Virus record (IMG/VR): IMGVR_UViG_3300042332_000818
Location: 55,390-119,389 of that record
Reading direction: 5' to 3' (one strand)
DNA length: 64,000 bases
Origin: a virus
Shown here one piece after another: positions 1 through 18,057 of the stretch. A program made the translations under genes and the position numbers. The notes under the pieces are model-generated. The model ran no database searches. It had not been told where the DNA came from and saw only the letters and a list, made by a program, of their open reading frames with translations. Each line of letters opens with the position of its first letter. The stretch's first letter is position 1.

Positions 1-1
1 T

Positions 2-3000: not shown

Positions 3001-6000
3001 TTATGCTGAAATGCTAATGCCCTCTCACTTTAGAGGTAAATCACTTGATAGTGAAAGAACAATGCATTCAGTTCGTATTCCTTCTCAAGCAAGCCAATCT
3101 GCAACAAACAGTAAGGTTGTTGATTATATGCCTGCTTACTATGGTTCAAGTGCTATTCTCCCGCAAGAGTTGATTGATATTACTGGTTGGGACTTTGACG
3201 CTGACTCTATTTTTGTTCATCGTCCTTTTACTTATCGTTTTGAAAACAGAGAACTTGTTTACGGTGAAGAAAAAACTGTAGCTGAAAAGAAGGCTGCTTA
3301 CTTTAACTCTCTTATAAATAATAATGAAGAGTATGCTTTGGAGCTTTCACGGTACGAAGATCCTACAGATGAAGTATTAAGAGAAGATATTACCCAGAAA
3401 ATGGGTATTAAGTATACAGAAGAGAAGTATAGAGCCACTCCTGAATACATCAACAACAGAATTCTTAAACTAAAAACTGCATTGCAAGGCTCTGAGTCTC
3501 GTACTGTTGCAAAAGATAGTGGTATTCCTAAGTCTTATCAACCAATGAAGACCGTTTCTTATGACGCTTTTGAAAGAAAGGTAAAAGAAGAATCACCTGA
3601 GTTTGCTAACTTCATTGATGCTCAAGTGGGTATTCACGATTCTATTCTTGGTCAACTTGATTTTTTTGGTAACATTAGAGAAGGTGCTGAGAATATCGGT
3701 CCGGCTGTAAATGGTGTACTTGCTTACTCTCTTTTAAACTTAGGAAGAGTTTCTGGTAATGAGGATGCTGGATTCACAGTAAATGGTAACCGATATAACA
3801 CATTTGAAAATGTTGTTGATACTGACGGTAACGACATTTCAGATAACATGTCTCAAACTGTGAGCATCATGGTTGATAACACTAGTAATCCTGTTGCAAG
3901 GATGTACGGTATGAGCCTTGAGCAAACCGGTGTTGCTGCATACATGACTTCTCTTGGTGTTTCAGTAGAAGACGCTCTATTATTTATCAATCAGCCTATT
4001 GTTAGACACTTTTCAAATGCTCTTAAAAACTCTAGATCTTCAATCAAGGTTAAGAGTGCTGATAAAGGTGCAAGCAGTAAAGAGATAATGGATCAAATGA
4101 TTCAACTCTTTAAAGCTAAACTTAAAACTGAAGCTGACGATGTTGAGTCTATAAGTCAATACAAAAATGCAGTAGATGCTTCTGCCGGATATGAAACTTT
4201 AAAGTACTCGGTATTGCCTATAGAAAAGGCTATTGAGGAAATGCCTATCTCAGAAGTTGAGAACCAGCTAAAGCTTTTGTTTCAATTTGATAAAGTAAAA
4301 ACACAAGCTCAGATATTCAGTGACTTTGCTAAGCTAACCAAGCTTAACCAGGGTGTTGGTAAAGATTCAGATAGCTTTGATAGATATCTTGAATTAGCCG
4401 ATATGTTTACTACCGAAGAGGGTGTTAAGTCTATTTCAAATTCAGGCTTCCCTGTTGAAGGTATTACCACCGCTATATCAAACAACGATTATCTTACAAC
4501 TCAAATTAAAGCGCTTAAAGAACTATCAAAACTGTTTAGAACGGTATTTATTGATAGATCTCCTGTGTTTGGATTTGTTCAGGAGTCTCTTGAAAATGTA
4601 TTAAGTCCTACGGATTACATTAAAAGAGGAGCTGTTGAAAATATTAGAAAGGATTTGATGTCTGTAATTACTGCTTCTGCTTATATGAATAAGCTAGAGG
4701 ATGGTGATATGAGAAACAGTAATCTTTCAAATGCTTTGATCTATGAAGCTCTTAAGACTAGTCAACCTTCCGTTAAAGACATTACTCAAATTGTAGGTTC
4801 ACTAAGAAGATACTACTCTGATAAAGGTGTTAGAAATAGATTTATTCAAGATTACCTTTTTTCTAATCCTGCTAAAAAGATTAACGGTCAGACAAATACT
4901 AAGAACCGTGAGCAGGTAAATAGAGTATCTCTTAACAGCTGGAGCAAGCTGTCACCTGAAATTGGCGATATGCTCTACAGAGATTTTGTAGATGGTATTA
5001 GTAATTCTGATGTACTTGATAACGGTATTACTGTTAGATCAGCATTCTTGGATCTTGTACACTACTTGATGGTTAAAGACGGCTTAAACTTTAAGAGCGG
5101 AAGCTTCCTGTCTTATGTTGCACCTATTGCACTTAGAGACATATTTGCTTCTAATAATGAGGCGATTAACGTTCTTAAAGATGCTGAAGGAATGCTTACA
5201 AAGTCAAGCAAAGTATTTGGTGGACCGTTGGATGTGTTTATTGGAGACTTCCTTATAAACTGGCCAAAGCATGCGGTAAACCAAAACGCTATAAAGACTT
5301 TGTTTACACCTGACTATAAAGATGAAAGAAAAGAAATCTTTGATGCTTTATTTAAGCAGGTTACAGAGGATCGTTTAAACGTTAGCATCTTTGGATATCA
5401 ATCAGCGTTTGAAGAAAATCTTAATGTTGATCAAGAGTCTGAAGGATATGCCGATTACTTTAAGAAGGTAGCTCCTGTATTTGGTGCTTCACAGTTTAAC
5501 AGTGTGAAATTTGAATCAGGAACTAAGACAGAGTTTCCGTTATACATAATTAAGGATAAAAATCTTTACAAGCTTTACTATTACTATGGTGGGGTTACTG
5601 ATTCTGAATTTTTTAATACTGCAGACGGAAAGGCTAGAAAGATTTCAATTGGTAATAACAATGTTGTAGCTGTATTGAATGCTTCTAAAAGAGAGTTGGG
5701 TAGAGTCGGGTTCTTCGGTTCATTTGCTCAGTACGAGAAAGTTAATGTAAAGGGTAACAGATCTCAAACTGGTGCAGGATACATCTTTGGTGATCTTCCA
5801 AACTATACTCTACTAGAATCTCAAGCTACTACTCCTACTTTAAAGACTGAACCTGCTGCTACAAGAACAGTTACACCTGTAAATCCTAAGCTTGAACAGG
5901 AAGCAGTGGAACAAAGATCTGCAATTATTAAAAATGCAGTATTGACAGCAACAACTACTGATAGTGAGTTTGCTGGAAATATTGACTTTGAAAATTCAAA

Positions 6001-6271
6001 TCTTGGAGGAAGACGTATAACAAAAGTTCCAACTTCTTTCCTTGAAACTTTAAATACATATCAGCTTACCGAGCAAGATCGTAATAAGCTTCGTCAACTA
6101 TATGAAAATAAAGCATTTACAACTTTAGAGACAGGTAATATAGATGTCTCAAGTTTTAGTAAATTTATGGATCTTATAGAAGAAACGATTCAAGTTAATA
6201 GAAGTGTGCAAAATCTTGACGATATTATTGATAGAATGCAAACTTGTTACGGTATAACAATCAACCTATAA
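2..6271 (+). CDS. Giant virion-type DNA-directed RNA polymerase of crAss-like phage (5' partial)
   Basis: The frame is open from base 2, and the GTG at 35 is not a convincing start, so the gene begins before the window. At least 2089 codons are present. The catalytic signature DFDAD (3191-3205, about residue 1060) lies in a G-W-D-F-D-A-D-S context, preceded by an R-I-P segment (about 3079-3090) as in the second double-psi beta barrel of YonO/phi14:2-type polymerases. A later stretch near 3907-3999, with an N-Q-P motif, resembles downstream parts of that family. In the family the enzyme is packaged in the virion and transcribes early genes after injection. Position 6 of the motif is Ser, where I recall Lys in many relatives. 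The next gene starts 4 bases downstream. Confidence 0.85.
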   Translation, partial: HGVQFINHAFKVFNIVADDSGAITKQSLLNVRNAATYQAFIKAFAEKSKRDYTFTAVDSRNKKKKSYDANRRSEGTLQYDSWRSAYNAKVDSITDETAKEAADILSNLTSIVNNVAVYDQSVSTAVKDGLTRFGDITGIEIAPAFYEYSWYKYKISENKLEMTEANAEVLSTVRLLSLPVLTPEILNQIGKSLLENKGTGLFLRDDSESSNEELYTVGGRVKALASGNVFFNENIDTTSFTNANGNKIQTYQVKTVLTKLVQALKQGLPTDAYRADNYLANNKEFLAILPEINTKSIDGLAARSLDNAGVSFNQQAGTVYADYTDREFLFNILSQYTEVEVINGVVTVPHFIRVLEAASTGMTVNLPVTKAVDFKTTGWTVNSEYLDALVAEVERDVRRIAEVQDQIEKVENPALDESELDFDIIENYHRGDKLGLKLSHNLRSLLGAEFSEKIESGLATDAELRKNLESSLIKSVDQFVDKLIQNNLLQRRKGLLEIGDSPLVSVVGRSGIAASKAARFVEDLNLFPMQEKDAPGVRNIRLEASIAQIFLSSFLNVSSFNQLLMGDHNKQFKDSKNVVKRAKGLNASGISTSHSTLAPELGINKKFDAKGDLVHITFPNDLSPEKTKRDDGQLYMTVNGLRYILFGMGRLREPAIANFLDKIQNGLPVSEEEVFGLNGTIQYNSQTNSLKLVYYDGETYLKMSAVVLTPELTTRFSSPGAFLDNLRRVLEKAEETATVAFGHPESAEKTFAKNAVSSRTDITPYNEVLFKKHFNALDPNFLYLSTEIPSNKTKITDPTQMKSILISGFSNADKVYVDGQEVSAVAAIKELLQLSAKRTESKYFERRKKTFEIEDFLDEFTKSLDLGKVTPKLDSFRLEAVDTLKSIGASPQEIEIFERGDINLNNPVTLSRFYTLFLSYFSKGVGKDIIPGYKLTLISDSGIVIRRRANTAISNGTSVDTVVTSDEYLRMSEAERKNVYDDRLRHDVKVYDKAGKIIDTYAEMLMPSHFRGKSLDSERTMHSVRIPSQASQSATNSKVVDYMPAYYGSSAILPQELIDITGWDFDADSIFVHRPFTYRFENRELVYGEEKTVAEKKAAYFNSLINNNEEYALELSRYEDPTDEVLREDITQKMGIKYTEEKYRATPEYINNRILKLKTALQGSESRTVAKDSGIPKSYQPMKTVSYDAFERKVKEESPEFANFIDAQVGIHDSILGQLDFFGNIREGAENIGPAVNGVLAYSLLNLGRVSGNEDAGFTVNGNRYNTFENVVDTDGNDISDNMSQTVSIMVDNTSNPVARMYGMSLEQTGVAAYMTSLGVSVEDALLFINQPIVRHFSNALKNSRSSIKVKSADKGASSKEIMDQMIQLFKAKLKTEADDVESISQYKNAVDASAGYETLKYSVLPIEKAIEEMPISEVENQLKLLFQFDKVKTQAQIFSDFAKLTKLNQGVGKDSDSFDRYLELADMFTTEEGVKSISNSGFPVEGITTAISNNDYLTTQIKALKELSKLFRTVFIDRSPVFGFVQESLENVLSPTDYIKRGAVENIRKDLMSVITASAYMNKLEDGDMRNSNLSNALIYEALKTSQPSVKDITQIVGSLRRYYSDKGVRNRFIQDYLFSNPAKKINGQTNTKNREQVNRVSLNSWSKLSPEIGDMLYRDFVDGISNSDVLDNGITVRSAFLDLVHYLMVKDGLNFKSGSFLSYVAPIALRDIFASNNEAINVLKDAEGMLTKSSKVFGGPLDVFIGDFLINWPKHAVNQNAIKTLFTPDYKDERKEIFDALFKQVTEDRLNVSIFGYQSAFEENLNVDQESEGYADYFKKVAPVFGASQFNSVKFESGTKTEFPLYIIKDKNLYKLYYYYGGVTDSEFFNTADGKARKISIGNNNVVAVLNASKRELGRVGFFGSFAQYEKVNVKGNRSQTGAGYIFGDLPNYTLLESQATTPTLKTEPAATRTVTPVNPKLEQEAVEQRSAIIKNAVLTATTTDSEFAGNIDFENSNLGGRRITKVPTSFLETLNTYQLTEQDRNKLRQLYENKAFTTLETGNIDVSSFSKFMDLIEETIQVNRSVQNLDDIIDRMQTCYGITINL

Positions 6272-6275
6272 TTAA

Positions 6276-9200
6276 ATGGCAACGTCTTGTTTTAATGTTA
6301 ATGATCCTGGATATCAGGCTTTGTTAAGTGCTTATAACGGTAATAATATTCTAGTAGATAGTCTTATTACTTCTTACCAAAAGGCTGGTAATGGAGATGC
6401 TATACCTTCTCCTGAGCAGGTTTCAGAGATGCTGAAAAACATGTATGTTGAAAAAGCAATAGACCCTGTAAAGGTTTCTTACTATCAAACAGTTGCGGAT
6501 CAGTCTACAAGCCAGGCTCAACGAGATGCTGTTATTAGTGTTCTTGAGTTTACTGAAAAAACTGACTTTGATCCTACGTCTCACACTTATGTAGATAGAC
6601 AAACCGGTCAGATTTTAAAGTCTACTACAACAGCTATCAAGGGCTCTTCTAAAATAGATAACTATTTACTTAATAGAGAAATAGGTAATCTTGCTGATAG
6701 AATGCTGGAGGGTATTATTACAGGTAAAAGATTAACCGATGTTTCTTTGGATTACTTTGATGAGCAGGGTAATAAAAAGACACTAGAGGTTTCTACTGAA
6801 ACTCTAAATGATATCTGGAGTGAGATGGAAGCTGTTGTAAGAACTCATCTTGAGATGGGCTCAGTGCTTATTCCTCAAGTGGTTGTTCAAAACTTAGAAG
6901 CTGGTATTGCCGGTTCTATAGACGTGCTTGTTGTAAAAAGAAATGGAAGCATGCAGGTTCTTGATCTTAAAACATCAAAGACTTCTGTAAAAGAGAAAAA
7001 AAATAACGGTAAGATTTCTTACTACCACACTGCATACGACCTTGAGAACGATTCAATTCTTGTAGAAAAAGGTCTGGCTTCAAAGCTTACAAAACATCAG
7101 CAGCATATTCTTCAGGTGAATATTTATACTAGAATGTTGGAGGCTGCTGGTTTTAAAGTTACAGAAGCATATACTCACAGATACAAAGTTGATATTAATG
7201 AGACTGAGACAGGTATCAATGGTATTGTAGATGAAGGTCGTTCAGAGAACATGTATTATGAAGAGTCTATGCTTGCTGACGCAATCATTGCAGAAAAAAC
7301 TCATTACAGTGGTAATCCGGTAGGTCAAGCATTGTTTGAAGAAGCTGACACTGAGAAATCACTACCTCAGAAAAGAGCTCAACTCTTAATAGAGAACTCA
7401 ATTATTAAGCCTTTGACTATGAGATTAAAGAATCTTTCCGATATCTATCGTGAAAGAGTGAATCTCAGAGATGATAACAATAGATTGTTTGTACCAAAGG
7501 CTGAAGATACCATTAATAAGCTGCAAGATCTTTTGTTTGTAATAGAGAAAGAGGGTAAGTCTGGTAGAGCAATACTTGCTTACTCTAGATTTCTTCGTTA
7601 TGCTACGGAGGACATGCAAAAAATCATTGACTTTCTTTCAAATAAAGAAAACGTTGAGTCTGAGAGAGCTGCCGGTATCATTACTAATGCTTCAAATTTT
7701 CTAGAAACATATAGTGATATTCAAAGAGCTTCAGGTGAACTACGACCAGAACTTCCATTAGAGCAACAAAAGCTCTATGATAAAATGGTATTAGCTTTAA
7801 ACGAGGCATTAGCTGTTGTGCATGCTGCTAAAGAACAGCATGTAAAATATATAATTAAAACCGGTACTTCTCAAAAACTTACAGATGAGGAGATTGATCA
7901 AGCTTTAAAAGAAGCTGAGACTATTTCAGGAGTTGATGCTGCGATTGGTGATCTTGATACCAGTACAGATGTACTTCTTAGAATTATTGCTAAGAGATTT
8001 AAAAGACAGTTGTTGACTGCTCAAGATAATTCTCGTGCTTTCAATAAGAGAGCTGATGAAGCTGCTGCAGATTTGATTAGACTTTCTCCAGGAAGAGTTG
8101 TAGACTATGGTTTCATGTATGAGGTTGATGCTAAAGGAGACCTTGTAGTTGTTGATCCTTATTCTACTGCATATTATGAAATGGAGGATGATCTTAGAAA
8201 AGATCTTTATGATTCTGACGGTAAATGGATAAACTACTACGAGATTAAAGATCCCCTTTCTGCTGATCCTAAGCACATTCAACATAACAAAGAACTCTTT
8301 GAAAAAAGAGAAGCTTATAATAGATTTAGAAGAGCTGAGATTATTGAGAATGGTACGTTTAAAGATGGTGAATATCATAAGTACAATGATGAATTTAAAG
8401 CGGCAAGATCTAGATTTGAATACTTTAATGGAAGATCTTGGGTAAAGAGACCACAGGTGAGTGATAGTCAATACCGAGTATTTAGAAACAAATACTACGA
8501 GGTTCATCATGATGTAACTCTTCCTGTTAGAAGTGGTAAAGGTTATACCGGTGTAGCTACAACTAGAACTATTGAAGTTCCTAAACGTAAGTATGCTGAA
8601 CCAAGATTAGATGCAAGAGATCCTTCCGGTAAAAGCTTTACAAACGCTAAGTATAGTATTCTGTTAAATCCTAGAACAGATCTTGAAAGAGCACAAAGTA
8701 AGTTTTATAACTTCTATGTAAATGAAATGCAGAAGGGAGTAATGGCAAAACTTCCGGATGATGTACAAGAACGTTATAAGCATAGAGTACCTTCTTATAA
8801 TGATTACAGTGAGCAGTTTGCACATATCCCTACTGTACCTCTTAGGGCTATAGTAAGAATGCTTTATAGTCTAAAGGATTTCTTTTTTGATTGGAATCTT
8901 CCTATATCTGCTGTAAGAAGAACTAAAATTGATGAAAAGGGTAGACCTGTTTCAACTTTGCCTTTGTTTATGACTGGAACATTTGATGATAATGTTCAAG
9001 AAAAAATAAATAAAATCAATAACGAACTTTCAACTTTAAAAGAAGATCTTCTTTCTAAAAAGATTTCTTTTACTGAATATGAAAAACTCCTTAAAGATCT
9101 CAAAGAAGAAAGAGCACGATTAAATAGAAGACCTCAAAAGAATATTGTAAGTAGAGATGTTCTTAAGTCTATGAAGATATTTCACAATCAGGTTTCTATA

Positions 9201-10763
9201 TATGAGCAAAAGATGGCTGCTGAAGACACCTTCCTTATGCTTAAAGAAGCTGCTACTAACAGAACTTACTACACAAGAAAGAAGTTTAACTCACTCACAG
9301 GTAAGCCTGCTTTTGAGAATGTAACTTCTACAGAAAGTTCTGCGACGGTTAAAAGGCTTGAGAAGTGGTTTAAGCAAATCTATTATGAAGAGAACTACTT
9401 TGAAGACTTGAGCGGAATGTCAAAAATTGGAAGTCTTGCTTTAAAGAAAATAGTAAGTGCTTCTTCATTAGTATATGTTGGTTACAACGTTTGGGGTAAC
9501 GCTGCTAACTTGGCGTTTGGTGGTGTTGCAAACCACATTGAAGGTTTTGCCGGTGTCCATTTTAGTGCTAAAGGTTTAGCTCATGCAAGAAAGTTACTCT
9601 ATACAGATTACTTTCCTAATAAGATTCAGAAAACAATGTCTGGATTTAATGCTAATCTTGAGCTTGTTGATGATCAACCGGGATCAAAGACAGAAGCTCT
9701 TATAAGATATTTTAATATGCCTAGACACCTCATTAGTGAAGATGAGCGTGGTAATGCTAATCAAATACCTGGTAGCTACTGGTTTCAAGACGGAGGTGAA
9801 TTTTTAATTCAATCAAGTACTGGTTTAGCAATGCTTGCTAAAATTAAATTGGTCAACGAGGAGAATGGTTCTCAGACTTCTGCTCTTGATGCCTATGATT
9901 GGGATCCTGATGCAAGGACTTTAAAGCTTAAGGATGGTGATTGGTACATAATTAATGATTACGGTGGCGGTGCTGGTGAAAAAGTTAAGTATGATGATGA
10001 CCAAAAGAGAATGGTTCAGAATTATATATACGAAGTAAACAAACAGATTCACGGTAACTACGCTGCAGAAGACAGAGTAGCAATACAAGATAATGCTATT
10101 GGTGCTGCAGCAATGCAGTTCCACAAATGGGTTTACCCTTCATTTAAAACTCACTTTAAAGGAAGATACTTTGATGAGAACCTTGGCTGGTATGAAGGAA
10201 GATATTTTAGCTTAATTAAGTTTATTGCTGCTCTTACAACGTTTGGAAATCCATCAGTGGCTTGGGCTTCTTTAGAAAAAGATCAAAAGGCTAATATTGG
10301 AAAAGTCGGTGCGCAATTAATGTTCTTTGCTTCTACTTTTATGATTGGTAATCTTATAGCGTCTTTAAAAGATTTGGGAGATGATGAGGATGATGATGAA
10401 GCTTTCTTCACCTTTAGAAGAAGTCTTAACGGATTGTCTTTCTTGAATGACAAAGTTGGAAACGATCTAGCTTTCTTTATAAACCCTGCAGACTTCTTGA
10501 CATTAAGTGAAAATCCAATTGCTTCTTTCAAGTATGCAAATCAATTTGTAGAAGCTTTTTGGAGAACTATGCAATTCTCTTACTACGGTATTGTTCAGAG
10601 CAATCAAGAACTGCTTGAAAATAAAGAGGTGTATTATCAAAGAGGTACTAGAGCGGGACAACTCAAACTTGCAAAAGAATGGGGAGATGTTATCCCGGCT
10701 CTATACACCATCAACCGCTGGAAAGGTTTTGATACAGTAGATTCCGATTACACCGGAAACTAA
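6276..10763 (+). CDS. Giant virion cargo/ejection-type protein with PD-(D/E)XK nuclease domain
   Basis: This 1495-residue protein follows the RNA polymerase by 4 bases. An N-terminal PD-(D/E)XK nuclease fold is visible at about residues 85-300: G-S-I-D (D216), D-L-K-T (D230, K232) and a later Q-V-N-I-Y helix, as in Cas4/RecB-like enzymes. The middle is charged and helical. The last 450 residues hold several hydrophobic stretches (about 1050-1085, 1340-1370, 1395-1430), one followed by an acidic G-D-D-E-D-D-D-E run, which suits a membrane-active ejection protein. Large proteins beside the polymerase are capsid or tail cargo in characterised crAss-like virions. The nuclease call is fairly strong; the ejection role is inference from position and hydrophobicity. 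Confidence 0.7.
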   Translation: MATSCFNVNDPGYQALLSAYNGNNILVDSLITSYQKAGNGDAIPSPEQVSEMLKNMYVEKAIDPVKVSYYQTVADQSTSQAQRDAVISVLEFTEKTDFDPTSHTYVDRQTGQILKSTTTAIKGSSKIDNYLLNREIGNLADRMLEGIITGKRLTDVSLDYFDEQGNKKTLEVSTETLNDIWSEMEAVVRTHLEMGSVLIPQVVVQNLEAGIAGSIDVLVVKRNGSMQVLDLKTSKTSVKEKKNNGKISYYHTAYDLENDSILVEKGLASKLTKHQQHILQVNIYTRMLEAAGFKVTEAYTHRYKVDINETETGINGIVDEGRSENMYYEESMLADAIIAEKTHYSGNPVGQALFEEADTEKSLPQKRAQLLIENSIIKPLTMRLKNLSDIYRERVNLRDDNNRLFVPKAEDTINKLQDLLFVIEKEGKSGRAILAYSRFLRYATEDMQKIIDFLSNKENVESERAAGIITNASNFLETYSDIQRASGELRPELPLEQQKLYDKMVLALNEALAVVHAAKEQHVKYIIKTGTSQKLTDEEIDQALKEAETISGVDAAIGDLDTSTDVLLRIIAKRFKRQLLTAQDNSRAFNKRADEAAADLIRLSPGRVVDYGFMYEVDAKGDLVVVDPYSTAYYEMEDDLRKDLYDSDGKWINYYEIKDPLSADPKHIQHNKELFEKREAYNRFRRAEIIENGTFKDGEYHKYNDEFKAARSRFEYFNGRSWVKRPQVSDSQYRVFRNKYYEVHHDVTLPVRSGKGYTGVATTRTIEVPKRKYAEPRLDARDPSGKSFTNAKYSILLNPRTDLERAQSKFYNFYVNEMQKGVMAKLPDDVQERYKHRVPSYNDYSEQFAHIPTVPLRAIVRMLYSLKDFFFDWNLPISAVRRTKIDEKGRPVSTLPLFMTGTFDDNVQEKINKINNELSTLKEDLLSKKISFTEYEKLLKDLKEERARLNRRPQKNIVSRDVLKSMKIFHNQVSIYEQKMAAEDTFLMLKEAATNRTYYTRKKFNSLTGKPAFENVTSTESSATVKRLEKWFKQIYYEENYFEDLSGMSKIGSLALKKIVSASSLVYVGYNVWGNAANLAFGGVANHIEGFAGVHFSAKGLAHARKLLYTDYFPNKIQKTMSGFNANLELVDDQPGSKTEALIRYFNMPRHLISEDERGNANQIPGSYWFQDGGEFLIQSSTGLAMLAKIKLVNEENGSQTSALDAYDWDPDARTLKLKDGDWYIINDYGGGAGEKVKYDDDQKRMVQNYIYEVNKQIHGNYAAEDRVAIQDNAIGAAAMQFHKWVYPSFKTHFKGRYFDENLGWYEGRYFSLIKFIAALTTFGNPSVAWASLEKDQKANIGKVGAQLMFFASTFMIGNLIASLKDLGDDEDDDEAFFTFRRSLNGLSFLNDKVGNDLAFFINPADFLTLSENPIASFKYANQFVEAFWRTMQFSYYGIVQSNQELLENKEVYYQRGTRAGQLKLAKEWGDVIPALYTINRWKGFDTVDSDYTGN

Positions 10764-11055: not shown

Positions 11056-12984
11056 ATGAAAAAGTTTTGGTGGAGTCTCTCGACTTCTCTTATATCTTTA
11101 AGCGTTCTTGCTCAAAACGGTGCTAATGAAATACTTGTAGCACCCGCAAGTAACGACCCTTATATCCTTGTAGATACACTATTTACACTGGATAACTATC
11201 CGGCAACGTACACAGATGTATACGTTCACTTTGCTAACCCTACCGCTACTCCGGTAAAGGCTGTACAATTCCGACTCTTCTATGACAACGCTAAGTTTTC
11301 AAACGCTGTCATGTTTTGGGGACCGACCGCACAACCTATTACGGATAAGTACGGTTCTTATTTTACAAATGCTGGCTACATTAACGTAGTAGCATCATAT
11401 ACTGGTTCTACACCGAACTTTGACTGGGCAGACGGGGCTATGTTTAAGCTTCGTCTTTTTCATTCTAGTGCATACAATGGTATAGCCACTTCTATGGCAA
11501 TTTCAGGATCTAGTAATTATCCTGCTCTTGCAACCATTGGTAATGGTACTGACGTAAACCTTGAGCTCTATAGTTACGGTGGTGCTTTCCAGATGACCCC
11601 AATGACGTTTCCTGTAAAGGTTAGAAACGCTGATGGTTCACCCGCTCAAGGTGTTTGGTTCTCTGCTAAGAAGAGACTTAAGTCTACACCTCTTGCTACT
11701 TGGCAACCAATTGATACTGATTCAACTAATATGGCTGGTCTAGTAGAGTTCACTCACCCGCTTGATACAAACTACTGGCACATGAAGATCTCTGCACAAA
11801 CAGATTCTATGTCTGATGGTGGAGCTTTGACTATTGTAGATGCGTACAAGTTGGCTAACCACGTATCTTCTCAAGATACTCTAAGTGGTATTGAATACTA
11901 CGAAGGTGATATTAACGAAAGCCAGTCTGTAACTGTATCAGATGCATTTGCTGTATTCAATAGACTAGCTCTTAACCAATCAAACTGGGATCAATTATTT
12001 ACGGGAGTAAATAACGTATCAGTTCTTTGGCCTTCTCAGTGGGCAACTGCAAATGCTGCTACAACTGCACCTAACTGGACAAACGTACCTAGACTATATG
12101 TAATTGATTCTATTGTAAATAGTCTTGATTCTCTAGAACCTTACATCTATGTAGTAGGTGATGCTACAACTTCAGGATACAATAATCCTGCAACTATTCT
12201 TGCTAAGATGGCAAACCCTGGATCTGGTACAGATTACATTCTTGATCCGGCAGTATACTTCTCTAATAAGCCAGACTCAATTGAATTTAGAATTCCTAAG
12301 CTTATTGTAACAACTGATAACTACATTGATGTACCTGTGACAGTGTACACGTTTGGTAATAAGGTTGGAGCTCTGCAGATGGGAATCCAGTATGATACTG
12401 CGGTATTTGAGTTTGTGTCTCTGAATATGGGAGATTCTGCTTCAAAGTGGACATCATTTATGACGTTTAAAGATGGTGGTGTATTCTGGGCTGGTCACGA
12501 AGATAAGATGAACCCTGCTCTTCTTCAAGGACCGTCTCAAGTATTTACTTTCAGATTTGCAGTTAAGTCTATTCTTGGATGGAGAACTTCTCCTCTTGCA
12601 ATCTTTAACAAAGCTGCAGGTGATGAGAATGCTTATGATATGTCTATTCGTCCTTCACCAAATGATGGCTCTGTAATCAACGGTAAAGCTGATATGGATG
12701 AGGAGACTAGAGCTCTGCTCACTGGATTTATTACTTACCCTAACCCTGTAACTGATCTTACTAATCACTGGTTGATTGCAGACTTTTACATTGAAGACTT
12801 TACAAACTTTAGCGGTCTGGTTCTTAACTCTCAAGGCCAGATTGTTAAGTCAGTTTCTAGTAAAATCACTGAAAGAGGTTTCCAAACTCAAGGTATTTGG
12901 TTTGGTGATCTTCCTAACGGTATTTACATCGTGAAGCTGACAACTAACGATAGAGAGAAATTTTACAAAATCATTAAATATTAA
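11056..12984 (+). CDS. Exported protein with cohesin-like and dockerin-like modules and type IX secretion C-terminal domain
   Basis: The 642-residue product starts with a Sec signal peptide (M-K-K, hydrophobic core, likely cut after V-L-A). Residues about 24-175 look like a cohesin-type beta sandwich. Residues about 280-305 contain D-I-N-E-S-Q-S-V-T-V-S-D-A-F, a dockerin-like calcium loop. A second cohesin-like sandwich spans about 409-519. The last 80 residues carry the type A type IX sorting pattern: Y-P-N-P-V, a central L-N-S-Q-G-Q-I-V strand, L-P-N-G-I-Y-I-V-K-L and a basic end. Proteins with this tail cross the outer membrane through the type IX system and stay on the surface or are released. 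The gene heads an exported-protein operon, with 5 bases to the next gene. Domain calls are by eye; surface placement is inferred. Confidence 0.75.
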   Translation: MKKFWWSLSTSLISLSVLAQNGANEILVAPASNDPYILVDTLFTLDNYPATYTDVYVHFANPTATPVKAVQFRLFYDNAKFSNAVMFWGPTAQPITDKYGSYFTNAGYINVVASYTGSTPNFDWADGAMFKLRLFHSSAYNGIATSMAISGSSNYPALATIGNGTDVNLELYSYGGAFQMTPMTFPVKVRNADGSPAQGVWFSAKKRLKSTPLATWQPIDTDSTNMAGLVEFTHPLDTNYWHMKISAQTDSMSDGGALTIVDAYKLANHVSSQDTLSGIEYYEGDINESQSVTVSDAFAVFNRLALNQSNWDQLFTGVNNVSVLWPSQWATANAATTAPNWTNVPRLYVIDSIVNSLDSLEPYIYVVGDATTSGYNNPATILAKMANPGSGTDYILDPAVYFSNKPDSIEFRIPKLIVTTDNYIDVPVTVYTFGNKVGALQMGIQYDTAVFEFVSLNMGDSASKWTSFMTFKDGGVFWAGHEDKMNPALLQGPSQVFTFRFAVKSILGWRTSPLAIFNKAAGDENAYDMSIRPSPNDGSVINGKADMDEETRALLTGFITYPNPVTDLTNHWLIADFYIEDFTNFSGLVLNSQGQIVKSVSSKITERGFQTQGIWFGDLPNGIYIVKLTTNDREKFYKIIKY

Positions 12985-12989
12985 AAACC

Positions 12990-13394
12990 ATGAGCGAAGA
13001 AACTCAAGAAGGAGGACTGTCAGGACTTAAGAAAACTATCTTAGGTGTTGCAGGAACAGCAGTAACCGGATTTGGAATCTGGGCTACTACTAATATCAAT
13101 AAGATCTTTGGTGTTGAAGAAGAGTCTGAAGTAAAGACTGAGCAAGTTGCTGAAGCTCCTGCCTCTGCAGGACAAGCAGCCGCACCAATTGTTCTAAACA
13201 TTGATAACTCTGCTACTAATAATGCTTCTGCTGGAGGTGGTGGTACAAACACTATCATTAAGGAAACCGTACGTGAAGTACCAGTTGCACAACCGGCTGC
13301 AGCTGCTCCTGTAGAAGAGAAGAAAGAAACTACTGCAGAGCGTATTGCAAGACTTAAGAAAGAAAAAGCTGATAAAGATGGAGCACAGAACTAG
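12990..13394 (+). CDS. Membrane-anchored Ala/Pro-rich protein of unknown function
   Basis: The 134-residue product has one predicted membrane segment at about residues 14-32 (G-V-A-G-T-A-V-T-G-F-G-I-W-A). After it come an acidic stretch, an Ala/Asn/Gly-rich low-complexity linker and a charged C-terminal helix. There is no signal peptide cut site, so it probably stays in the inner membrane. The next gene starts inside its last codons (ATG at 13378), which suggests translational coupling. I do not recognise a family. A tether or adaptor between the membrane and the neighbouring exported proteins is possible but speculative. Confidence 0.7.
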   Translation: MSEETQEGGLSGLKKTILGVAGTAVTGFGIWATTNINKIFGVEEESEVKTEQVAEAPASAGQAAAPIVLNIDNSATNNASAGGGGTNTIIKETVREVPVAQPAAAAPVEEKKETTAERIARLKKEKADKDGAQN

Positions 13395-14124
13395 AAAAGA
13401 AGAACTAATGGCAATGGTTGCCAGTGTTCTCGGTATTGCAATGATTATTGCTTTTCTGATTACTGTCGGAGGAGTAGCAACATCTTGTTCTTCATCAATT
13501 TCTACTACACAATACCAAGCTGAATTTGAAAAAGCTCAACCTCTAAATACATTTCCTGTATTCACTGGTGAGAAAAAAGTAATTCAGATTGCCAATCTTA
13601 ACGTTAATAAGGAACTGTGGGAGATGTTTCCAGAACTTAGAGACAAGAGAGTTGGTATGGGTGTTTCTAACCGTATTGTAGAAAACTTTGAGGTGACTCA
13701 GAGATTCTTGTATGCGGAAGAAAAGGAAGCCATTGTTAATCAAATGCTTGATGTATGGGAGAAAGATCTCAATGACATGGGTGACGGTAGAACCAAGCTC
13801 AACGTGGGCTCGGTAGTTCTGCCTAAGTACATTGTCTATGCAGAGATCTATGAATTCTCTACGTCTTATGGGGAAACTTACGATAAAGGAAAACTTCAGA
13901 AGACTAATACTACTATCATCGGTATTCAAATTAAGATGGTTAATGTAGATAACTCTCAATATATTGTTGCATCTGGTCAAGGAACTTCTACTCAGGTTGG
14001 TGAGGGCTTCTTTAAGAATCCCACTATGGGCTTTGATCAGTCAACGGTGGGTGTAGCTACACAACGTGCGTTAGAGGTTGCCACGGTAAACCTTATGAAG
14101 CGCATGGACCAATATGGATGGTAA
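13378..14124 (+). CDS. CsgG-like curli-type secretion/outer-membrane protein
   Basis: I chose the ATG at 13378 because it overlaps the previous stop and gives a basic N-terminus followed by a hydrophobic segment ending in T-S-C-S-S-S, a weak lipobox. The 248-residue product then shows the CsgG/HfaB pattern: an N-terminal alpha/beta part, Y-I-V-Y-A-E-I-Y-E-F, a strand with I-G-I-Q-I-K-M-V-N-V-D, S-G-Q-G-T-S-T and a final helix with A-L-E-V-A-T-V-N-L-M. In the family these lipoproteins form outer-membrane channels or periplasmic assembly factors. It sits between the membrane-anchored protein and a Gly/Ser-rich exported protein. The family call is by eye and moderate; channel formation is inference. 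Confidence 0.55.
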   Translation: MEHRTRKEELMAMVASVLGIAMIIAFLITVGGVATSCSSSISTTQYQAEFEKAQPLNTFPVFTGEKKVIQIANLNVNKELWEMFPELRDKRVGMGVSNRIVENFEVTQRFLYAEEKEAIVNQMLDVWEKDLNDMGDGRTKLNVGSVVLPKYIVYAEIYEFSTSYGETYDKGKLQKTNTTIIGIQIKMVNVDNSQYIVASGQGTSTQVGEGFFKNPTMGFDQSTVGVATQRALEVATVNLMKRMDQYGW

Positions 14125-15604
14125 ATTCAAAATATTATTATTATTTCTGCTGGGATGTATAGGGTTGCAAGCACAAACGTTTACTTACAACTACACGGAT
14201 CCTTGTACGGGAATGCTACAGACGGTCACCCTGTCTCAGACATCTGGGACAGTGGTGATGTTTTATGCTGGGCAGTACCAAACTTTTACAGCAGCTCAAC
14301 TTCAGTCAGGAGCTTATGAAAACTGGATTGCTCAAATTAATACTCAGTTTCCTCCAGGTAGCAACCCTTGTGCAGGTAACGGTTCTTCTAACGCTAATAA
14401 TAGTAACGCAAACATCGGTACAAACACAGCAAATAGTGTTAGTGGCATTGTCTCTATTAGCACTTCCATTGCGGGAAGCCTCGGTGGAGGTAGCGTAAGT
14501 TCAGGTTCAATATCAACAGGTAATACAAATGGATCATCGTCATCTTCTGGTAGCAGTTCTAATGATAACACTAACAATAACAGTGGGTCTTCTGGGTCTT
14601 CAGGTGGGTCATCCTCTGGTTCCTCTGGTAGCTCTGGCTCTAATTCTGGTGGAACTAGTGGTGGTTCTAGTTCTGGCGGTGGTAACACCGGAGGATCAGG
14701 AAGTAGCTCGGGTGGTTCGTCTGGCTCATCAGGTGGAGGTAACTCAGGTAGACCAGACAGTGGTGGTAGTACCGGAGGAGGTACTGGAACATCAGGTAGT
14801 AATCCTGACGGAGGAGCAACGGGTGGTACGTCTGAAAGCACTGGAGGAGCTAGCTCTACTGGGGGAACTTCAGAGAATACAACAACAGCATCTGGAGGAG
14901 AATCAGAAAGCTCCGGAGACTCCGGTGGTGGAGGAGGTGGTGGTAATAAACCAAAACAAAAGCAAGAAAAAATAGGTAGAGGTTCTCTGATTGGTTCAGG
15001 GGATTTTGTTATTATCCGTAATGGTAATGACATTAGTAAGCGTAATGATAATGTACGCTTCAATGCGTCAGTTACTCACGTTAACACCAAGCAAAACTTT
15101 ATCAAGGGTGTCAATCTGAACTATACCACAGGAGAGAATGTAGCTAACCTTACTCTGTATGGGTCCTATAAGAAAAAAGATTTCATGGCGGTGGGGTCCA
15201 ATTCTTTCATGACTAATTTTAAATCTGATTGGTTTAACACGGTAACTATTCTAGGTGCACAGAAACTTTGGAAGTTTACCTTCATGGGAGGTAGCAACTT
15301 TACATTGGGTCAGATAGGTAAATCTGGTTTCCAGAACTGGTCTATGGTAGGTGGTGCGTTCACTAATTTCAAAGGAGGTAAGACTGTATCTGCTAACATA
15401 ATGGCTCTAGGTGTATACTCACCTTATATCTTTTATTACGAAGGACAATGGTACAAGTCTGGCTTTCTTATTGTACCTCTAGCAAACGTTGACTTTAAAC
15501 TTACCGATAAGTTTAAGTGGAGTATCTCATTCTCAGGAGCATACCAATACAACGCTGACATTCTTAACTTTCAGTTATCAACCGGTACAAAGATGTTGCT
15601 ATGA
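14114..15604 (+). CDS. Exported Gly/Ser-rich protein with beta-barrel-like C-terminal domain
   Basis: The gene starts 11 bases before the end of the CsgG-like gene. Its 496-residue product has a signal peptide (hydrophobic L-L-L-F-L-L-G, likely cut after L-Q-A), a small folded part with two Cys (about 22-90), then a long Gly/Ser/Asn/Thr tract (about 95-285). The last 200 residues alternate polar and aromatic residues in strand-like units, such as W-S-I-S-F-S-G-A-Y-Q-Y, as in outer-membrane barrels. The tract resembles a flexible stalk or a secreted low-complexity polymer. A long Pro-rich frame on the other strand is only its shadow. Role unknown; a substrate or partner of the CsgG-like protein is a working guess. 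Confidence 0.65.
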   Translation: MDGKFKILLLFLLGCIGLQAQTFTYNYTDPCTGMLQTVTLSQTSGTVVMFYAGQYQTFTAAQLQSGAYENWIAQINTQFPPGSNPCAGNGSSNANNSNANIGTNTANSVSGIVSISTSIAGSLGGGSVSSGSISTGNTNGSSSSSGSSSNDNTNNNSGSSGSSGGSSSGSSGSSGSNSGGTSGGSSSGGGNTGGSGSSSGGSSGSSGGGNSGRPDSGGSTGGGTGTSGSNPDGGATGGTSESTGGASSTGGTSENTTTASGGESESSGDSGGGGGGGNKPKQKQEKIGRGSLIGSGDFVIIRNGNDISKRNDNVRFNASVTHVNTKQNFIKGVNLNYTTGENVANLTLYGSYKKKDFMAVGSNSFMTNFKSDWFNTVTILGAQKLWKFTFMGGSNFTLGQIGKSGFQNWSMVGGAFTNFKGGKTVSANIMALGVYSPYIFYYEGQWYKSGFLIVPLANVDFKLTDKFKWSISFSGAYQYNADILNFQLSTGTKMLL

Positions 15605-16722
15605 GAAAGTTTATTTTAAGTCTAATTTTTATACTGTCGGTATCAATCCAGACGTATTCTCAAACTATTACCCTGACTCCAATTGGAACTCAAGATGTTA
15701 GTGGTATACCGGTTACTGTAGACCATTATGTCACTACAGCTAATGGTACTACATCTGTAAAAATATATAGAACTCACTACGGAAACGGCAACACTTCTCA
15801 GTATGCAATATATCCTGGTACTCGTACTGAGATGAATAAGCTGTTTAATACTGCTTATGCTGCTACAACTTTATGGTGGAGTGGTAATATGAGTGCTAAC
15901 TCTTCTTTAAACTTCTATCAATTTACTACACTTACTAATGCTGGAGCTAGTGTACCTCCTAATGGGGATTACTATGCCACCGAAGTAACGTTCACTTTTG
16001 TTGCTGCAGAAACAGGGACCTATTCTTTTGGTCTTACCTCTGATGATGGTTCTGATCTAGCAATAAACGGAACCTCTGTAGTAGAATGGTATGGTGGCAA
16101 GGGTACCGGACAGTATAAATATGGTAACTATTCAATGGTTGCAGGAACTCAGTATACAGTGGTAGCTCGCATGCAAGAATACGGTGGAGGAGACGGACTA
16201 GTATTGGTATGGAGAAGACCATCACAAGGTTCTTGGTCTTTACAATTATCAGAGATTGGTGTTACCTCTAGTTCTTGGGTGAGTCAGGGGACCAAGAATA
16301 CAAATGCTTCCGGACAAGTATCATGGACTAATTCTTCTAACTGGCCTTATAGAGTGACGGTAGATGTCACTAATAATTATCATACTCTTACAGATGCGGA
16401 TATGAACTATCTCATGTATAAGAAGGCAGGATTATCTCCACTGCAATCATGGGACTTCTATACTTGCGATATAAATAATTCTACTGTGTTTGATTATGAT
16501 GATATAGTTTTTGGATATGTCATCTGGTCCCAAGGTCATCTACACAATAAGTATATTTTTACTAAAGCTCAGCGAGATGCTATAATTACATCACCGTCTA
16601 CAAATTTTTATACTACTTACTTCCCTGTTCAAACATTGATTGTGGAAAATCAAAATCTGTTTTACATAATGGGGACAGGTAAACATCAAACTACTATTAA
16701 TAACTTAAATAGAATACAATGA
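15601..16722 (+). CDS. Exported PA14-domain protein
   Basis: The start overlaps the previous stop (ATGA). The 373-residue product has a clear signal peptide (M-R-K, hydrophobic core, cut after T-Y-S). A PA14 beta sandwich spans about residues 70-205: the F-T-F-V-A-A-E-T-G-T-Y-S-F strand, the S-D-D-G-S-D-L loop and the later G-L-V-L-V-W-R-R strand. PA14 domains usually bind carbohydrate. A C-terminal region (about 250-373) with D-I-N-N-S-T-V-F-D-Y-D-D is dockerin-like in wording but weaker. Glycan binding at the host surface or in released material fits both the domain and the operon. PA14 is confident; target and role are inferred. Confidence 0.7.
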   Translation: MRKFILSLIFILSVSIQTYSQTITLTPIGTQDVSGIPVTVDHYVTTANGTTSVKIYRTHYGNGNTSQYAIYPGTRTEMNKLFNTAYAATTLWWSGNMSANSSLNFYQFTTLTNAGASVPPNGDYYATEVTFTFVAAETGTYSFGLTSDDGSDLAINGTSVVEWYGGKGTGQYKYGNYSMVAGTQYTVVARMQEYGGGDGLVLVWRRPSQGSWSLQLSEIGVTSSSWVSQGTKNTNASGQVSWTNSSNWPYRVTVDVTNNYHTLTDADMNYLMYKKAGLSPLQSWDFYTCDINNSTVFDYDDIVFGYVIWSQGHLHNKYIFTKAQRDAIITSPSTNFYTTYFPVQTLIVENQNLFYIMGTGKHQTTINNLNRIQ

Positions 16723-17138
16723 ACCCCATTTTGATAATGTGCTTTTACGTTGCTAGCGTAAGCTCTCAAGATAATCTAGCAGGTATTGATAACCAGAAGT
16801 TCACTTTTGGTCTCAAGCAAATGACTGAAGATATTCTTCTACAACAAGGAAATCCTTTGTGTGATCAGTCTTCAGAAGGTGCAAGTCCGGTGTATGTAAC
16901 AGTCACTGACATCAAAGCTCCAACTCAAGGTATACGTCTAGGTCCGTTTGAATTTAAACAAAAGAAAACCATCGTAGAGGTAGACATTGCAATTGGTTCT
17001 AAAGTCTATCACGGAGTAGGAAAAGCTAATACAAATGTTGCTGCAACCATGATGCAGCTTCAGGATGAAAACCTTGCATTTGAAAGAACAGAATTTTCTG
17101 TTGCTGTTAAGAAGGCAATAGTTGATGCTCTGGACTAA
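16719..17138 (+). CDS. Small exported protein, possibly CsgG-superfamily partner
   Basis: The 139-residue product starts in an ATGA overlap. It has a short hydrophobic N-terminus ending in V-S-S-Q, compatible with a short signal peptide. The mature part has an alpha/beta pattern ending in strand V-V-E-V-D-I-A-I, a V-G-K-A-N-T-N turn and a final helix with A-V-K-K-A-I-V-D-A-L. That topology recalls the periplasmic half of CsgG/LPP20-type proteins and would pair with the gene at 13378. I cannot assign a family with confidence. It closes the operon just before the 17121 promoter. Confidence 0.5.
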   Translation: MNPILIMCFYVASVSSQDNLAGIDNQKFTFGLKQMTEDILLQQGNPLCDQSSEGASPVYVTVTDIKAPTQGIRLGPFEFKQKKTIVEVDIAIGSKVYHGVGKANTNVAATMMQLQDENLAFERTEFSVAVKKAIVDALD

Positions 17139-17182: not shown

Positions 17183-17446
17183 ATGTTTAATCAATTAAAG
17201 AAGAAGTTTATGGCTTTTTGGGATATTTTCAAGGACAATAATGAGTGGAACGAGAAGACTATTGTTGGTTTCTTGTCATTCGCTGTAATGAGCATTACAG
17301 CTATTGCCGATGTAGTAACAGGTATTATGGGCAAAGAGCTCATCATCTCTGATACAATTTTTAATTCGTTTGTAATAATCACACTGGGAGCTTTCGGTAT
17401 TGCTGAAGCTGGAAAGATCTTCGGTGGTAAAAAAGAAGAAGAATGA
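17183..17446 (+). CDS. Holin-like small membrane protein
   Basis: The 87-residue product has two likely membrane segments (about residues 27-47 and 57-77) joined by a short turn with G-K-E-L, a charged N-terminus and a Lys/Glu-rich tail. This is the class II holin layout. Its stop overlaps the start of the endolysin (ATGA), the classic holin-endolysin arrangement. Holins open the inner membrane so that endolysin reaches the cell wall. The role is inferred from topology and neighbour. Confidence 0.7.
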   Translation: MFNQLKKKFMAFWDIFKDNNEWNEKTIVGFLSFAVMSITAIADVVTGIMGKELIISDTIFNSFVIITLGAFGIAEAGKIFGGKKEEE

Positions 17447-18057
17447 GTCTAAAGAGTCTACAAACCAAAGCGGGTGTTACGGCAGATGGAGCATTTGGTC
17501 CGGGCACTCTAAAAGCAGGAATGGCTTACTACAAGTTTACACCTGAACGTGCTGCACATTTCTTTGCACAAACAGCTCACGAGACCGGAGGCTTTAAAGC
17601 TTTCTCTGAGAATCTGAACTACGGTGCTAAAGGATTGCTTGGTATTTTTAAAAAGTACTTCCCTACAGAAGCTCTAGCTGCTCAGTATGAGCGTAAGCCA
17701 GAGAAGATTGCAAACCGTGTGTATGCATCTCGTATGGGTAATGGTGATGAAGCATCTGGTGACGGATGGAAGTACCGTGGACGTGGTGCTCTGCAATTGA
17801 CCGGTAAGTCTAACTACCAAGCATTTGCTGATTACTTGAAGAAGCCAGAGATCATGACTAACCCTGATCTGGTTGCTACTGAGTATGCATTTGAATCTGC
17901 TATCTTCTTCTTTGATCGTAATAAGTTGTGGGATATCTGTGATAAAGGTGTAAACAACGACACTATTCTTGCTCTTACAAAGAGAATCAATGGAGGTACT
18001 CACGGTCTAGAGGATCGTAAAGAAAAAACCCTGAAGTACTACGGATGGGTAAAGTAA
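17443..18057 (+). CDS. Endolysin, glycoside hydrolase family 19 (chitinase/lysozyme-like)
   Basis: The 204-residue product begins with a short peptidoglycan-binding-like segment (L-Q-T-K-A-G-V-T-A-D-G-A-F-G-P, residues 6-20). The GH19 domain follows: A-H-E-T-G-G-F with E47 as the likely acid, S-E-N-L-N-Y with E56 as the likely base, G-D-G-W-K-Y-R-G-R-G-A-L-Q-L-T-G and a late R-I-N-G-G. There is no signal peptide, so it depends on the holin-like protein upstream. It should cleave the glycan strand of peptidoglycan. A hairpin terminator lies just after the stop. Confidence 0.9.
   Translation: MSLKSLQTKAGVTADGAFGPGTLKAGMAYYKFTPERAAHFFAQTAHETGGFKAFSENLNYGAKGLLGIFKKYFPTEALAAQYERKPEKIANRVYASRMGNGDEASGDGWKYRGRGALQLTGKSNYQAFADYLKKPEIMTNPDLVATEYAFESAIFFFDRNKLWDICDKGVNNDTILALTKRINGGTHGLEDRKEKTLKYYGWVK

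What the first reader, a model, noticed from the sequence alone, without database searches (positions are those of the whole stretch)
11056..12984. Phage protein carrying a type IX secretion sorting domain with cohesin and dockerin-like modules
Seen: a signal peptide, two cohesin-like sandwiches, a dockerin-like D-I-N-E-S loop and a Y-P-N-P...L-P-N-G-I-Y-I-V-K tail in one phage protein. Known: such tails direct Bacteroidota proteins through the type IX system. Inference: the phage borrows the host surface export route, and this narrows the host to groups with that system.
Basis: partly seen in the sequence, partly recalled or inferred. Interest (0 to 1): 0.75.

Follow-up and report, generated by a model that had tools for sequence, protein, structure and literature searches.

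The report
Phage cassette for host-surface adhesin display
A protein in this Bacteroidota phage really does carry the host's type IX export tag, and it heads a conserved gene cassette that probably dresses the infected cell's surface with sugar-binding proteins.

Summary
The 642-aa protein ends in a type A type IX sorting domain: TIGR04183 30.9 bits against a cut-off of 23, PF18962 28.9 against 27. It has one certain cohesin domain and a dockerin-like module; the first sandwich is only weakly cohesin-like. The larger finding is that the gene heads a conserved phage cassette. In 68 of 68 IMG/VR loci with at least 3 kb upstream, a tailed protein (in one locus split into two genes) precedes a lipoprotein whose model best matches the curli channel CsgG. 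A Gly/Ser-rich exported protein, a lectin/PA14 protein whose heads often swap, and a small CsgG-like protein follow. Carriers have different terminases, and one relative is cultured, Flavobacterium phage immuto. Best reading: the phage uses host type IX secretion to anchor a cohesin scaffold on the infected cell and display glycan-binding adhesins, for sibling capture or superinfection exclusion. Anatomy is well supported. Export, channel activity, cohesin-dockerin pairing and purpose are inferred. Phage type IX cargo and phage CsgG operons are separately in print; ten searches listed no paper that appears to describe them combined.

The parts
11056..12984 (+). Type IX-tailed cohesin protein (642 aa), head of the cassette
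11056..11112 (+). predicted Sec signal peptide (aa 1-19; Q at +1)
   Evidence: sequence; all 32 members of A3, window included, have a hydrophobic N-terminus ending before or at a Q; no signal-peptide program run
11137..11595 (+). first beta-sandwich (aa 28-180), possibly cohesin-like
   Evidence: model strands; weak profile similarity to the second sandwich
11596..12180 (+). module largely shared with the adhesin slot: Ig-like piece plus dockerin-like helices (aa 181-375; dockerin-like aa 250-312)
   Evidence: hhalign A3 vs A8 99.6%, E 1.4e-23, about aa 209-376; Dockerin_1 in 15 of 32 members
12181..12267 (+). disordered linker (aa 376-404); in immuto the protein is two genes, parted at about this place
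   Evidence: pLDDT below 50 at 376-404; immuto26A_14/_15
12262..12690 (+). cohesin domain (aa 403-545)
   Evidence: PF00963 above cut-off; 6kgd_A Z 16.5
12721..12981 (+). type A type IX sorting domain (aa 556-642)
   Evidence: TIGR04183 and PF18962 above cut-off; 8glj_D E 1.1e-5 by profile; mirolase CTD 8qb1_A Z 10.7, rmsd 1.8
12990..13394 (+). small protein with one N-terminal hydrophobic stretch, likely inner membrane (134 aa)
   Evidence: cluster found in 88 of 101 sources, duplicates included; topology read by eye
13378..14124 (+). lipoprotein with CsgG-like fold (248 aa; the longer TTG frame starts at 13345)
   Evidence: Foldseek rows 1-25 all CsgG or curli-complex chains, best E 1.5e-9; VIA Z 13.7; lipobox in most family members
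14114..15604 (+). exported protein: signal peptide, small N-terminal domain, about 190-residue Gly/Ser/Asn-rich stretch, possible beta-barrel C-terminus by look only (496 aa)
   Evidence: sequence; downstream of the lipoprotein in 69 of 69 loci
15601..16722 (+). adhesin-slot protein: signal peptide, PA14 head, C-terminal shared dockerin-like module (373 aa)
   Evidence: PF07691 28.5 bits, cut-off 24
16719..17138 (+). small protein similar to the C-terminal half of the CsgG-like lipoprotein (139 aa)
   Evidence: hhalign 90.8%, E 1.2e-6
17183..17446 (+). small membrane protein, holin-like by position and look (87 aa)
   Evidence: cluster 6; no Pfam hit
17443..18057 (+). endolysin (GH19-like)
   Evidence: PF00182 35.1 bits; phrog_181 E 2.9e-63

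Best explanation
The protein is genuine type IX cargo encoded by a phage and is the anchor of a phage surface-display cassette. Proposed mechanism: the Sec system exports the cassette proteins into the periplasm. The host type IX machinery recognises the C-terminal domain, moves the cohesin protein across the outer membrane and attaches it to the surface. The CsgG-like lipoprotein, with its small CsgG-like partner, the Gly/Ser-rich protein and the small membrane protein, forms an envelope assembly that helps export or hold the adhesin-slot protein, which has a signal peptide but no type IX tail. The adhesin's sugar-binding head (PA14, C-type lectin, laminin-G and others, often exchanged between close relatives) is held at the surface through cohesin and dockerin-like modules. 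The infected cell thus shows phage-chosen lectins, either to hold nearby host cells for the progeny or to mask receptors against other phages. Shown by computation: the domains, gene order, conservation and head swaps. Inferred: export, docking, channel activity, timing and purpose.
For: Tail above curated cut-offs, at E<=0.1 in 32 of 32 family members, and over the cut-off in 45 of 45 records that I selected. dN far below dS for the gene and its tail, window versus L011 and L003. Gene order: 68 of 80 loci had at least 3 kb upstream; in all 68 the upstream protein is of this family (67 whole, 1 as two genes) and is hit by a tail HMM (53 distinct proteins). 69 had at least 5.5 kb downstream, with the Gly/Ser protein in 69, an adhesin in 68 and the small CsgG-like protein in 66. 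CsgG-like fold. Shared module between cargo and adhesin. Heads in the adhesin slot at E<=0.01: Lectin_C 10, PA14 9, laminin-G 1 and others of 37. Head swapping: in 10 of the 25 pairs with the most similar cargo the heads are under 50% identical, for example L076/L073 with cargo 93%, lipoprotein 98%, head 11%, adhesin C-terminus 81%. 0 of 80 adhesin-slot ORFs is hit by the tail HMM. In immuto and L097 the anchor half (cohesin plus tail) is a gene of its own with its own signal peptide.
Against: No expression, localisation or binding data. The lipoprotein model is modest (mean pLDDT 67); its Foldseek TM-scores to CsgG are only 0.38-0.51, non-channel lipoproteins score not far below, and a clear second membrane hairpin is missing, so a channel is unproven. 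The dockerin loop is partial and gives no Pfam hit in the window protein. Cohesin-dockerin pairing was not tested. In 15 of the 25 closest pairs the head is not swapped, and the adhesin C-terminus also follows the cargo only loosely (Spearman 0.34, against 0.85 for the lipoprotein and 0.17 for the head, 903 pairs). Type IX secretion in the host is assumed. The verified endolysin cluster is in 47 of 80 stretches, which also fits a lysis role. Melnitz phage, which encodes CsgG and CsgF, showed no cell clumping in culture (PMC9004378).
Confidence: 0.55

Rival explanations
1. The cassette is an outer-membrane step of lysis. The small membrane protein and the lipoprotein act like a spanin pair or a pinholin-like pore beside the holin and endolysin, and the tailed protein and adhesin load or weaken the envelope.
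For: Endolysin cluster 5 in 47 of 80 fetched stretches, or 56 with cluster 8, whose longest member matches endolysin families; inner-membrane protein next to and overlapping the lipoprotein gene in the window; a lysis role was proposed for phage CsgG in Melnitz (PMC9004378).
Against: Spanins need no swappable lectin heads, cohesins or type IX tail. Neither endolysin cluster is in 24 of 80 stretches, though it may lie beyond some short ones. In immuto the cassette lies beside replication genes.
Confidence: 0.17
2. The proteins are virion parts (fibres or receptor-binding proteins), and the tail domain is only a beta-sandwich used structurally.
For: Cohesin, lectin and PA14 folds are adhesion modules; in some loci the cassette follows a gene that looks fibre-like to me (L004; not tested).
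Against: Signal peptides on the cargo and, by a crude rule, on 55 of 69 distinct 300-600-aa proteins of the cluster, and a lipobox on the lipoprotein, would take them out of the cytoplasm where virions assemble. The tail is kept in all 32 family members.
Confidence: 0.08
3. Its one role is superinfection exclusion: lectins mask receptor glycans and, in one clade, an exported nuclease beside the cassette destroys incoming DNA.
For: Heads change between many close relatives. Signal-peptide PF01223 nuclease in 18 loci including immuto. The surface-exclusion lipoprotein TraT is among the fold matches of the lipoprotein, but low (Z 8.1, row 48).
Against: The nuclease is not in the window's cassette; no direct evidence. 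It overlaps the best explanation and differs only in purpose.
Confidence: 0.15
4. Ordinary host cargo gene picked up by chance, with no phage-specific role.
For: Type IX cargo with cohesin or dockerin modules is common in Bacteroidota (recalled).
Against: Same gene order in phages with different terminases; lipoprotein family nearly unseen in the bacterial genomes searched; purifying selection.
Confidence: 0.05

Closest known systems
Cryophage type IX cargo genes (PMC7468147)
   Same: A phage encodes proteins with type A sorting domains, one with a PA14 domain, proposed to use host type IX secretion (passages read).
   Different: There three variable cargo genes (endoglucanase, GH39, PA14). 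Here one conserved cohesin cargo heads a multi-gene cassette with a CsgG-like protein. Whether Cryophage has this cassette was not tested.
crAss-like cluster 2 BACON / T9SS ORFs (PMC6949934)
   Same: crAss-like phages with type IX sorting-domain proteins upstream of the head section (passages read).
   Different: BACON domains; no such cassette in the passages read.
Curli-related operons of pelagimyophages and methylophage Melnitz (PMC7029224, PMC9004378)
   Same: Phage-encoded CsgG (type VIII secretion pore) in an operon; 'sibling capture' or lysis control proposed (passages and one section part).
   Different: Proteobacterial hosts, CsgF present, annotated as CsgG; no adhesins or type IX cargo in what I read. 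Here the lipoprotein is CsgG-like by fold only.
csgG genes in marine phage sequences (PMC7003362)
   Same: csgG listed among the most abundant phage-encoded 'virulence genes' (passages read).
   Different: Treated as single virulence genes in the passages read.
Flavobacterium phage immuto (Immutovirus)
   Same: Cultured phage with the same cassette: split cargo, TM protein, lipoprotein, Gly/Ser protein, lectin, small protein.
   Different: Cargo in two genes; lectin upstream; in the record only the second cargo half ('cohesin domain') and the lectin bear a name.
Cellulosome cohesin-dockerin scaffolds
   Same: Cohesin fold and dockerin-like module in the same gene set.
   Different: No enzyme cargo, partial dockerin, anchored by a type IX tail; pairing not shown.

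Membership tests
T9SS type A cargo | C-terminal domain matching TIGR04183 / PF18962 above curated cut-off | tested here: met
   30.9 vs 23 and 28.9 vs 27 bits
T9SS type A cargo | N-terminal Sec signal peptide | tested here: inconclusive
   seen by eye in all 32 family members; no signal-peptide program run
T9SS type A cargo | secretion that depends on the type IX system | not testable with these tools
   needs a reporter in a type IX mutant
Cohesin domain | PF00963 above cut-off and cohesin fold | tested here: met
   second sandwich, aa 403-545
Cohesin domain | same for the first sandwich (aa 28-180) | tested here: inconclusive
   no Pfam hit; weak profile similarity
Type I dockerin | PF00404 match and two calcium loops | tested here: inconclusive
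   window not hit at E<=1; 15 of 32 members hit at E<=0.1; one full loop visible by eye
CsgG curli channel | CsgG fold | tested here: met
   on a model of mean pLDDT 67
CsgG curli channel | Pfam CsgG sequence match | tested here: not met
   no CsgG family listed at E<=1 for 9 diverse members or the window protein
CsgG curli channel | two transmembrane hairpins forming a ring-shaped pore | tested here: inconclusive
   one long hairpin (151-189); no clear second hairpin in the model; oligomer not modelled
CsgG curli channel | lipoprotein | tested here: met
   lipobox regex in 44 of 60 distinct members; reading the other 16 by eye: 11 more with LF(S/G)C or FNSC, 2 truncated, 3 without
Phage spanin pair | inner-membrane protein plus outer-membrane lipoprotein beside holin and endolysin | tested here: inconclusive
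   arrangement fits in many loci; no test of function

The most novel reading that the evidence does not exclude
A phage-borne surface-display machine, unlike any I found described: a type IX-anchored cohesin scaffold, a CsgG-like outer-membrane assembly and swappable lectin heads, shared by Bacteroidota phages with different terminases, builds a structure on the infected cell that captures sibling cells or excludes rivals. It would also suggest what the unexplained phage curli operons of marine Proteobacteria phages do.
Probability: 0.35. Interest if true: 0.85.

Novelty: new variant of a known kind. Interest (0 to 1): 0.7.

Why it matters
Phage type IX cargo and phage CsgG operons have each been reported as puzzles. 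Here they meet in one conserved cassette with adhesive heads, across phages with different terminases, and in a cultured phage-host pair (immuto on Flavobacterium sp. LMO8). That makes the open question of what phages gain by exporting proteins to the surface of a cell they are about to kill directly testable. The tail also gives a usable host clue for uncultured phages: hosts with type IX secretion.

Tried and rejected
Tested and set aside. Curli by sequence: no CsgG match for the lipoprotein in Pfam or PDB sequences; it became visible only by fold. A PDB sequence link for the Gly/Ser protein and the small protein gave only chance-level rows. PHROGs: for the window's tailed protein, TM protein, lipoprotein, Gly/Ser protein, adhesin and small protein the best E was 0.01 (adhesin, an exonuclease family) or worse; two more family members gave nothing. 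Other phage isolates: tblastn in 50,697 phage records found only the four immuto records for the tailed protein, lipoprotein and Gly/Ser protein, and the tail alone only three of them at E 0.9, so such a short tail is a poor tblastn probe. Bacterial source: the genome-contig scan, by two short patterns, gave one relative among 173 pattern matches, and its contig carries a terminase, so it is probably a phage in a MAG. A profile search of 395 Bacteroidota genomes gave 2 matches, one of them that same MAG (the centre of the search) and one at E 1.5e-5, which I did not inspect. A Baltic Flavobacterium phage paper (PMC7077304, passages) names neither immuto, cohesin nor type IX. An endolysin-SprA fusion paper (PMC12628812, abstract) is about engineering and not this system.

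Against my reading. The lipoprotein model is weak (pLDDT 67), and non-channel lipoproteins also score: Cj1090c Z 11.8, PelC 11.0, LptE about 10. The first cohesin is unproven. The 'adhesin' cluster was joined to the cargo by loose clustering through a shared module; the profile comparison is the firmer evidence. Head identities are matches over the longer length, so length differences lower them. Some records carry a second type IX tail outside the cassette (G003, G022, G030, G032 over the cut-off; G017, G019 below it), not followed up.

Rows dropped before counts. A3 used 32 of 33 non-redundant proteins of 600+ aa; one 731-aa cluster member at L077:14030-16222 was left out as a different protein. 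A8 used 37 of 49 sequences of that length class, and one of the 37 is immuto's split cargo half and not an adhesin; head families overlap within proteins. Four lipoproteins in A4 were given with tblastn-trimmed ends. One search used 45 records chosen by me, not all. One search counted 68 and 69 of 80 loci, the rest having too little flank; the 80 are not independent (58 distinct lipoproteins). One search reduced 65 loci to 43. Terminases: phrog_6681 gave 8 of 47 records, 2 of them over most of the model; phrog_2 gave 18 of 46, of which I count 11 as terminases, the rest short matches. In most records no terminase was found.

Literature: ten full-text searches; apart from the papers named I saw only listings. 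The library holds only open-licence PMC papers.

Full report
OBSERVATION. Its last 80 residues match the type A type IX sorting domain over both curated cut-offs: TIGR04183 30.9 bits against 23 and PF18962 28.9 against 27. A profile of the family finds solved sorting domains: 8glj_D E 1.1e-5, 5jvk_A 1.6e-4, 8glk_D 5e-4. The predicted structure (mean pLDDT 80.9) superposes aa 556-642 on the mirolase sorting domain (Z 10.7, rmsd 1.8) and aa 403-544 on clostridial cohesins (Z 16.5, rmsd 2.4). As a chance control, a tail HMM built from 20 relatives chosen as more distant scores the window tail at 59 bits, and the best of 2000 shuffles at 7.9. The dockerin-like stretch shows no Pfam hit in the window protein itself, but Dockerin_1 hits 15 of 32 family members at E<=0.1. 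The first sandwich is only weakly cohesin-like.

THE RECORD. The window is bases 55390-119389 of a 119,389-bp IMG/VR viral record with one sorting domain in all. Its terminase (59296-61470) matches phrog_6681 and, at about 25% identity, terminases of crAss-like phages (cr116_1, cr50_1), Flavobacterium psychrophilum phages and other phages, mostly of Bacteroidota by name (25 of 142 records listed).

RELATIVES. The whole protein has relatives in 14 IMG/VR loci (one of them over only 23 residues) and in four immuto phage records, 28% identical, from Flavobacterium sp. LMO8. In immuto the protein is two neighbouring genes, each with its own signal peptide by eye: immuto26A_14, and immuto26A_15 with the cohesin and the tail. 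The split falls at about the disordered linker of the model, aa 376-404. Selection is purifying: whole gene dN 0.033 and dS 0.307 against L011, dN 0.091 and dS 0.853 against L003; tail dN 0.017 and dS 0.269 against L011. Against the more distant L004, and for the signal peptide against L003, dS is at or near saturation and says little.

THE CASSETTE. A profile of the downstream lipoprotein gave 318 confirmed stretches in viral contigs, of which the best 80 loci were kept. The like scan of bacterial genomes gave a single relative among 173 pattern matches, on a contig that also carries a terminase. Clustering of all loci shows one order: tailed protein, small membrane protein, lipoprotein, Gly/Ser-rich exported protein, adhesin-slot protein, small protein, often with a small membrane protein and an endolysin beside them. 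Of the 80 loci, 68 had at least 3 kb upstream of the lipoprotein; all 68 have a protein of this family there (67 whole, 1 as two genes), and all 68 are hit by the tail HMM (53 distinct proteins). Of 69 with at least 5.5 kb downstream, 69 have the Gly/Ser protein, 68 an adhesin and 66 the small protein. The endolysin cluster of the window lies in 47 of the 80 stretches, and with a second cluster in 56. TIGR04183 over the cut-off was found in 45 of 45 records that I selected. In the family, Pfam at E<=0.1 finds the tail in 32 of 32 and cohesin in 30 of 32. Where a terminase was found, the carriers differ: phrog_6681 matches over most of its length only in the window's record and its near relative G001 (2 of 47); phrog_2-type terminases lie in frames of 525-620 residues in nine others including immuto, one of them with stops, and in frames of 729-742 residues in two more (11 of 46).

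THE PARTS. The lipoprotein has no sequence match to CsgG, but its model's first 25 Foldseek rows in the PDB are all CsgG or curli-complex chains (best E 1.5e-9, TM-scores 0.38-0.51), and the re-alignment puts eight such entries on top (Z 12.3-13.7, 158-174 residues, rmsd 3.0-3.8; next Cj1090c 11.8). In the viral library the best match is a phage protein named CsgG (E 2.5e-8). The model is modest and lacks a clear second membrane hairpin, so a channel is not shown. The small protein resembles the C-terminal half of the lipoprotein (E 1.2e-6, 90.8%). The adhesin slot shares a roughly 150-residue module with the tailed protein (99.6%) and carries varied heads: C-type lectin in 10, PA14 in 9, SdrD_B in 4, GEVED in 3, Ig_7 in 2, GLEYA in 2 and laminin-G in 1 of 37, with overlaps (one of the 37 is immuto's split cargo half). 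Heads swap between close relatives in part: in 10 of the 25 pairs with the most similar cargo the heads are under 50% identical, in 15 they are not. L076 and L073 are 93% identical in the tailed protein and 98% in the lipoprotein, but 11% in the head and 81% in the adhesin C-terminus. Over 903 pairs the rank correlation with the tailed protein is 0.85 for the lipoprotein, 0.34 for the adhesin C-terminus and 0.17 for the head. 0 of 80 adhesin-slot ORFs is hit by the tail HMM, and no sorting-domain family appears, so adhesins need another way to the surface, or to stay there.

MECHANISM. The most economical reading is a surface-display cassette. The host type IX system carries and anchors the cohesin protein, a CsgG-like assembly serves the envelope, and the lectin or PA14 protein is held outside through cohesin and dockerin-like modules. 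Whether the gain is capture of sibling cells, exclusion of rival phages or help in lysis is open. A signal-peptide nuclease (PF01223) near the cassette in 18 loci including immuto would fit exclusion in that clade.

PRIOR WORK. Cryophage carries three type IX cargo genes (PMC7468147, passages). crAss-like cluster 2 phages carry type IX sorting domains (PMC6949934, passages). Marine phage sequences often carry csgG (PMC7003362, passages). Pelagimyophages carry CsgG and CsgF with a 'sibling capture' hypothesis (PMC7029224, passages). Melnitz carries both, with a lysis hypothesis and no clumping seen (PMC9004378, passages and part 1 of 2 of one section). None of the ten search listings shows a paper that appears to describe the combination found here. 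The finding is therefore a new variant that joins two known oddities, with a cultured system in which to test it.

Noticed in passing
L016:9935-10513, L090:11261-11854 and 16 more loci (cluster 12): A DNA/RNA non-specific endonuclease (PF01223, E 1.1e-25 in immuto) with a signal peptide lies in or beside the cassette in the immuto-like clade.
   Followed up: partly
L086:7089-7562 and 21 more loci (cluster 9): A small exported protein; one member shows an HESLH motif as in zinc metallopeptidases; no Pfam hit in the one member scanned.
   Followed up: no
L004:12595-13413, L002:12512-13336 and others (cluster 10): An exported ~272-aa protein ending in NYDF in the 10 members printed, like an outer-membrane barrel end; present in some cassettes and missing from the window.
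   Followed up: no
G003, G022, G030 and G032: Second type IX sorting domains over the cut-off outside the cassette in the same phage records.
   Followed up: no
window 1-10763: Two giant reading frames (2089 aa or more, and 1495 aa) before the cassette; the first has no PHROG match at E<=0.001, the second only weak nuclease-like hits.
   Followed up: no
window 14001-16000: GC content peaks at 42% over the Gly/Ser protein, with a second peak of 40-42% at 50-56 kb; most of the rest is 34-39%.
   Followed up: no
G039:C1:159396-161030: Terminase match read through one TGA and one TAA, perhaps an intron or insertion in a 292-kb phage.
   Followed up: no
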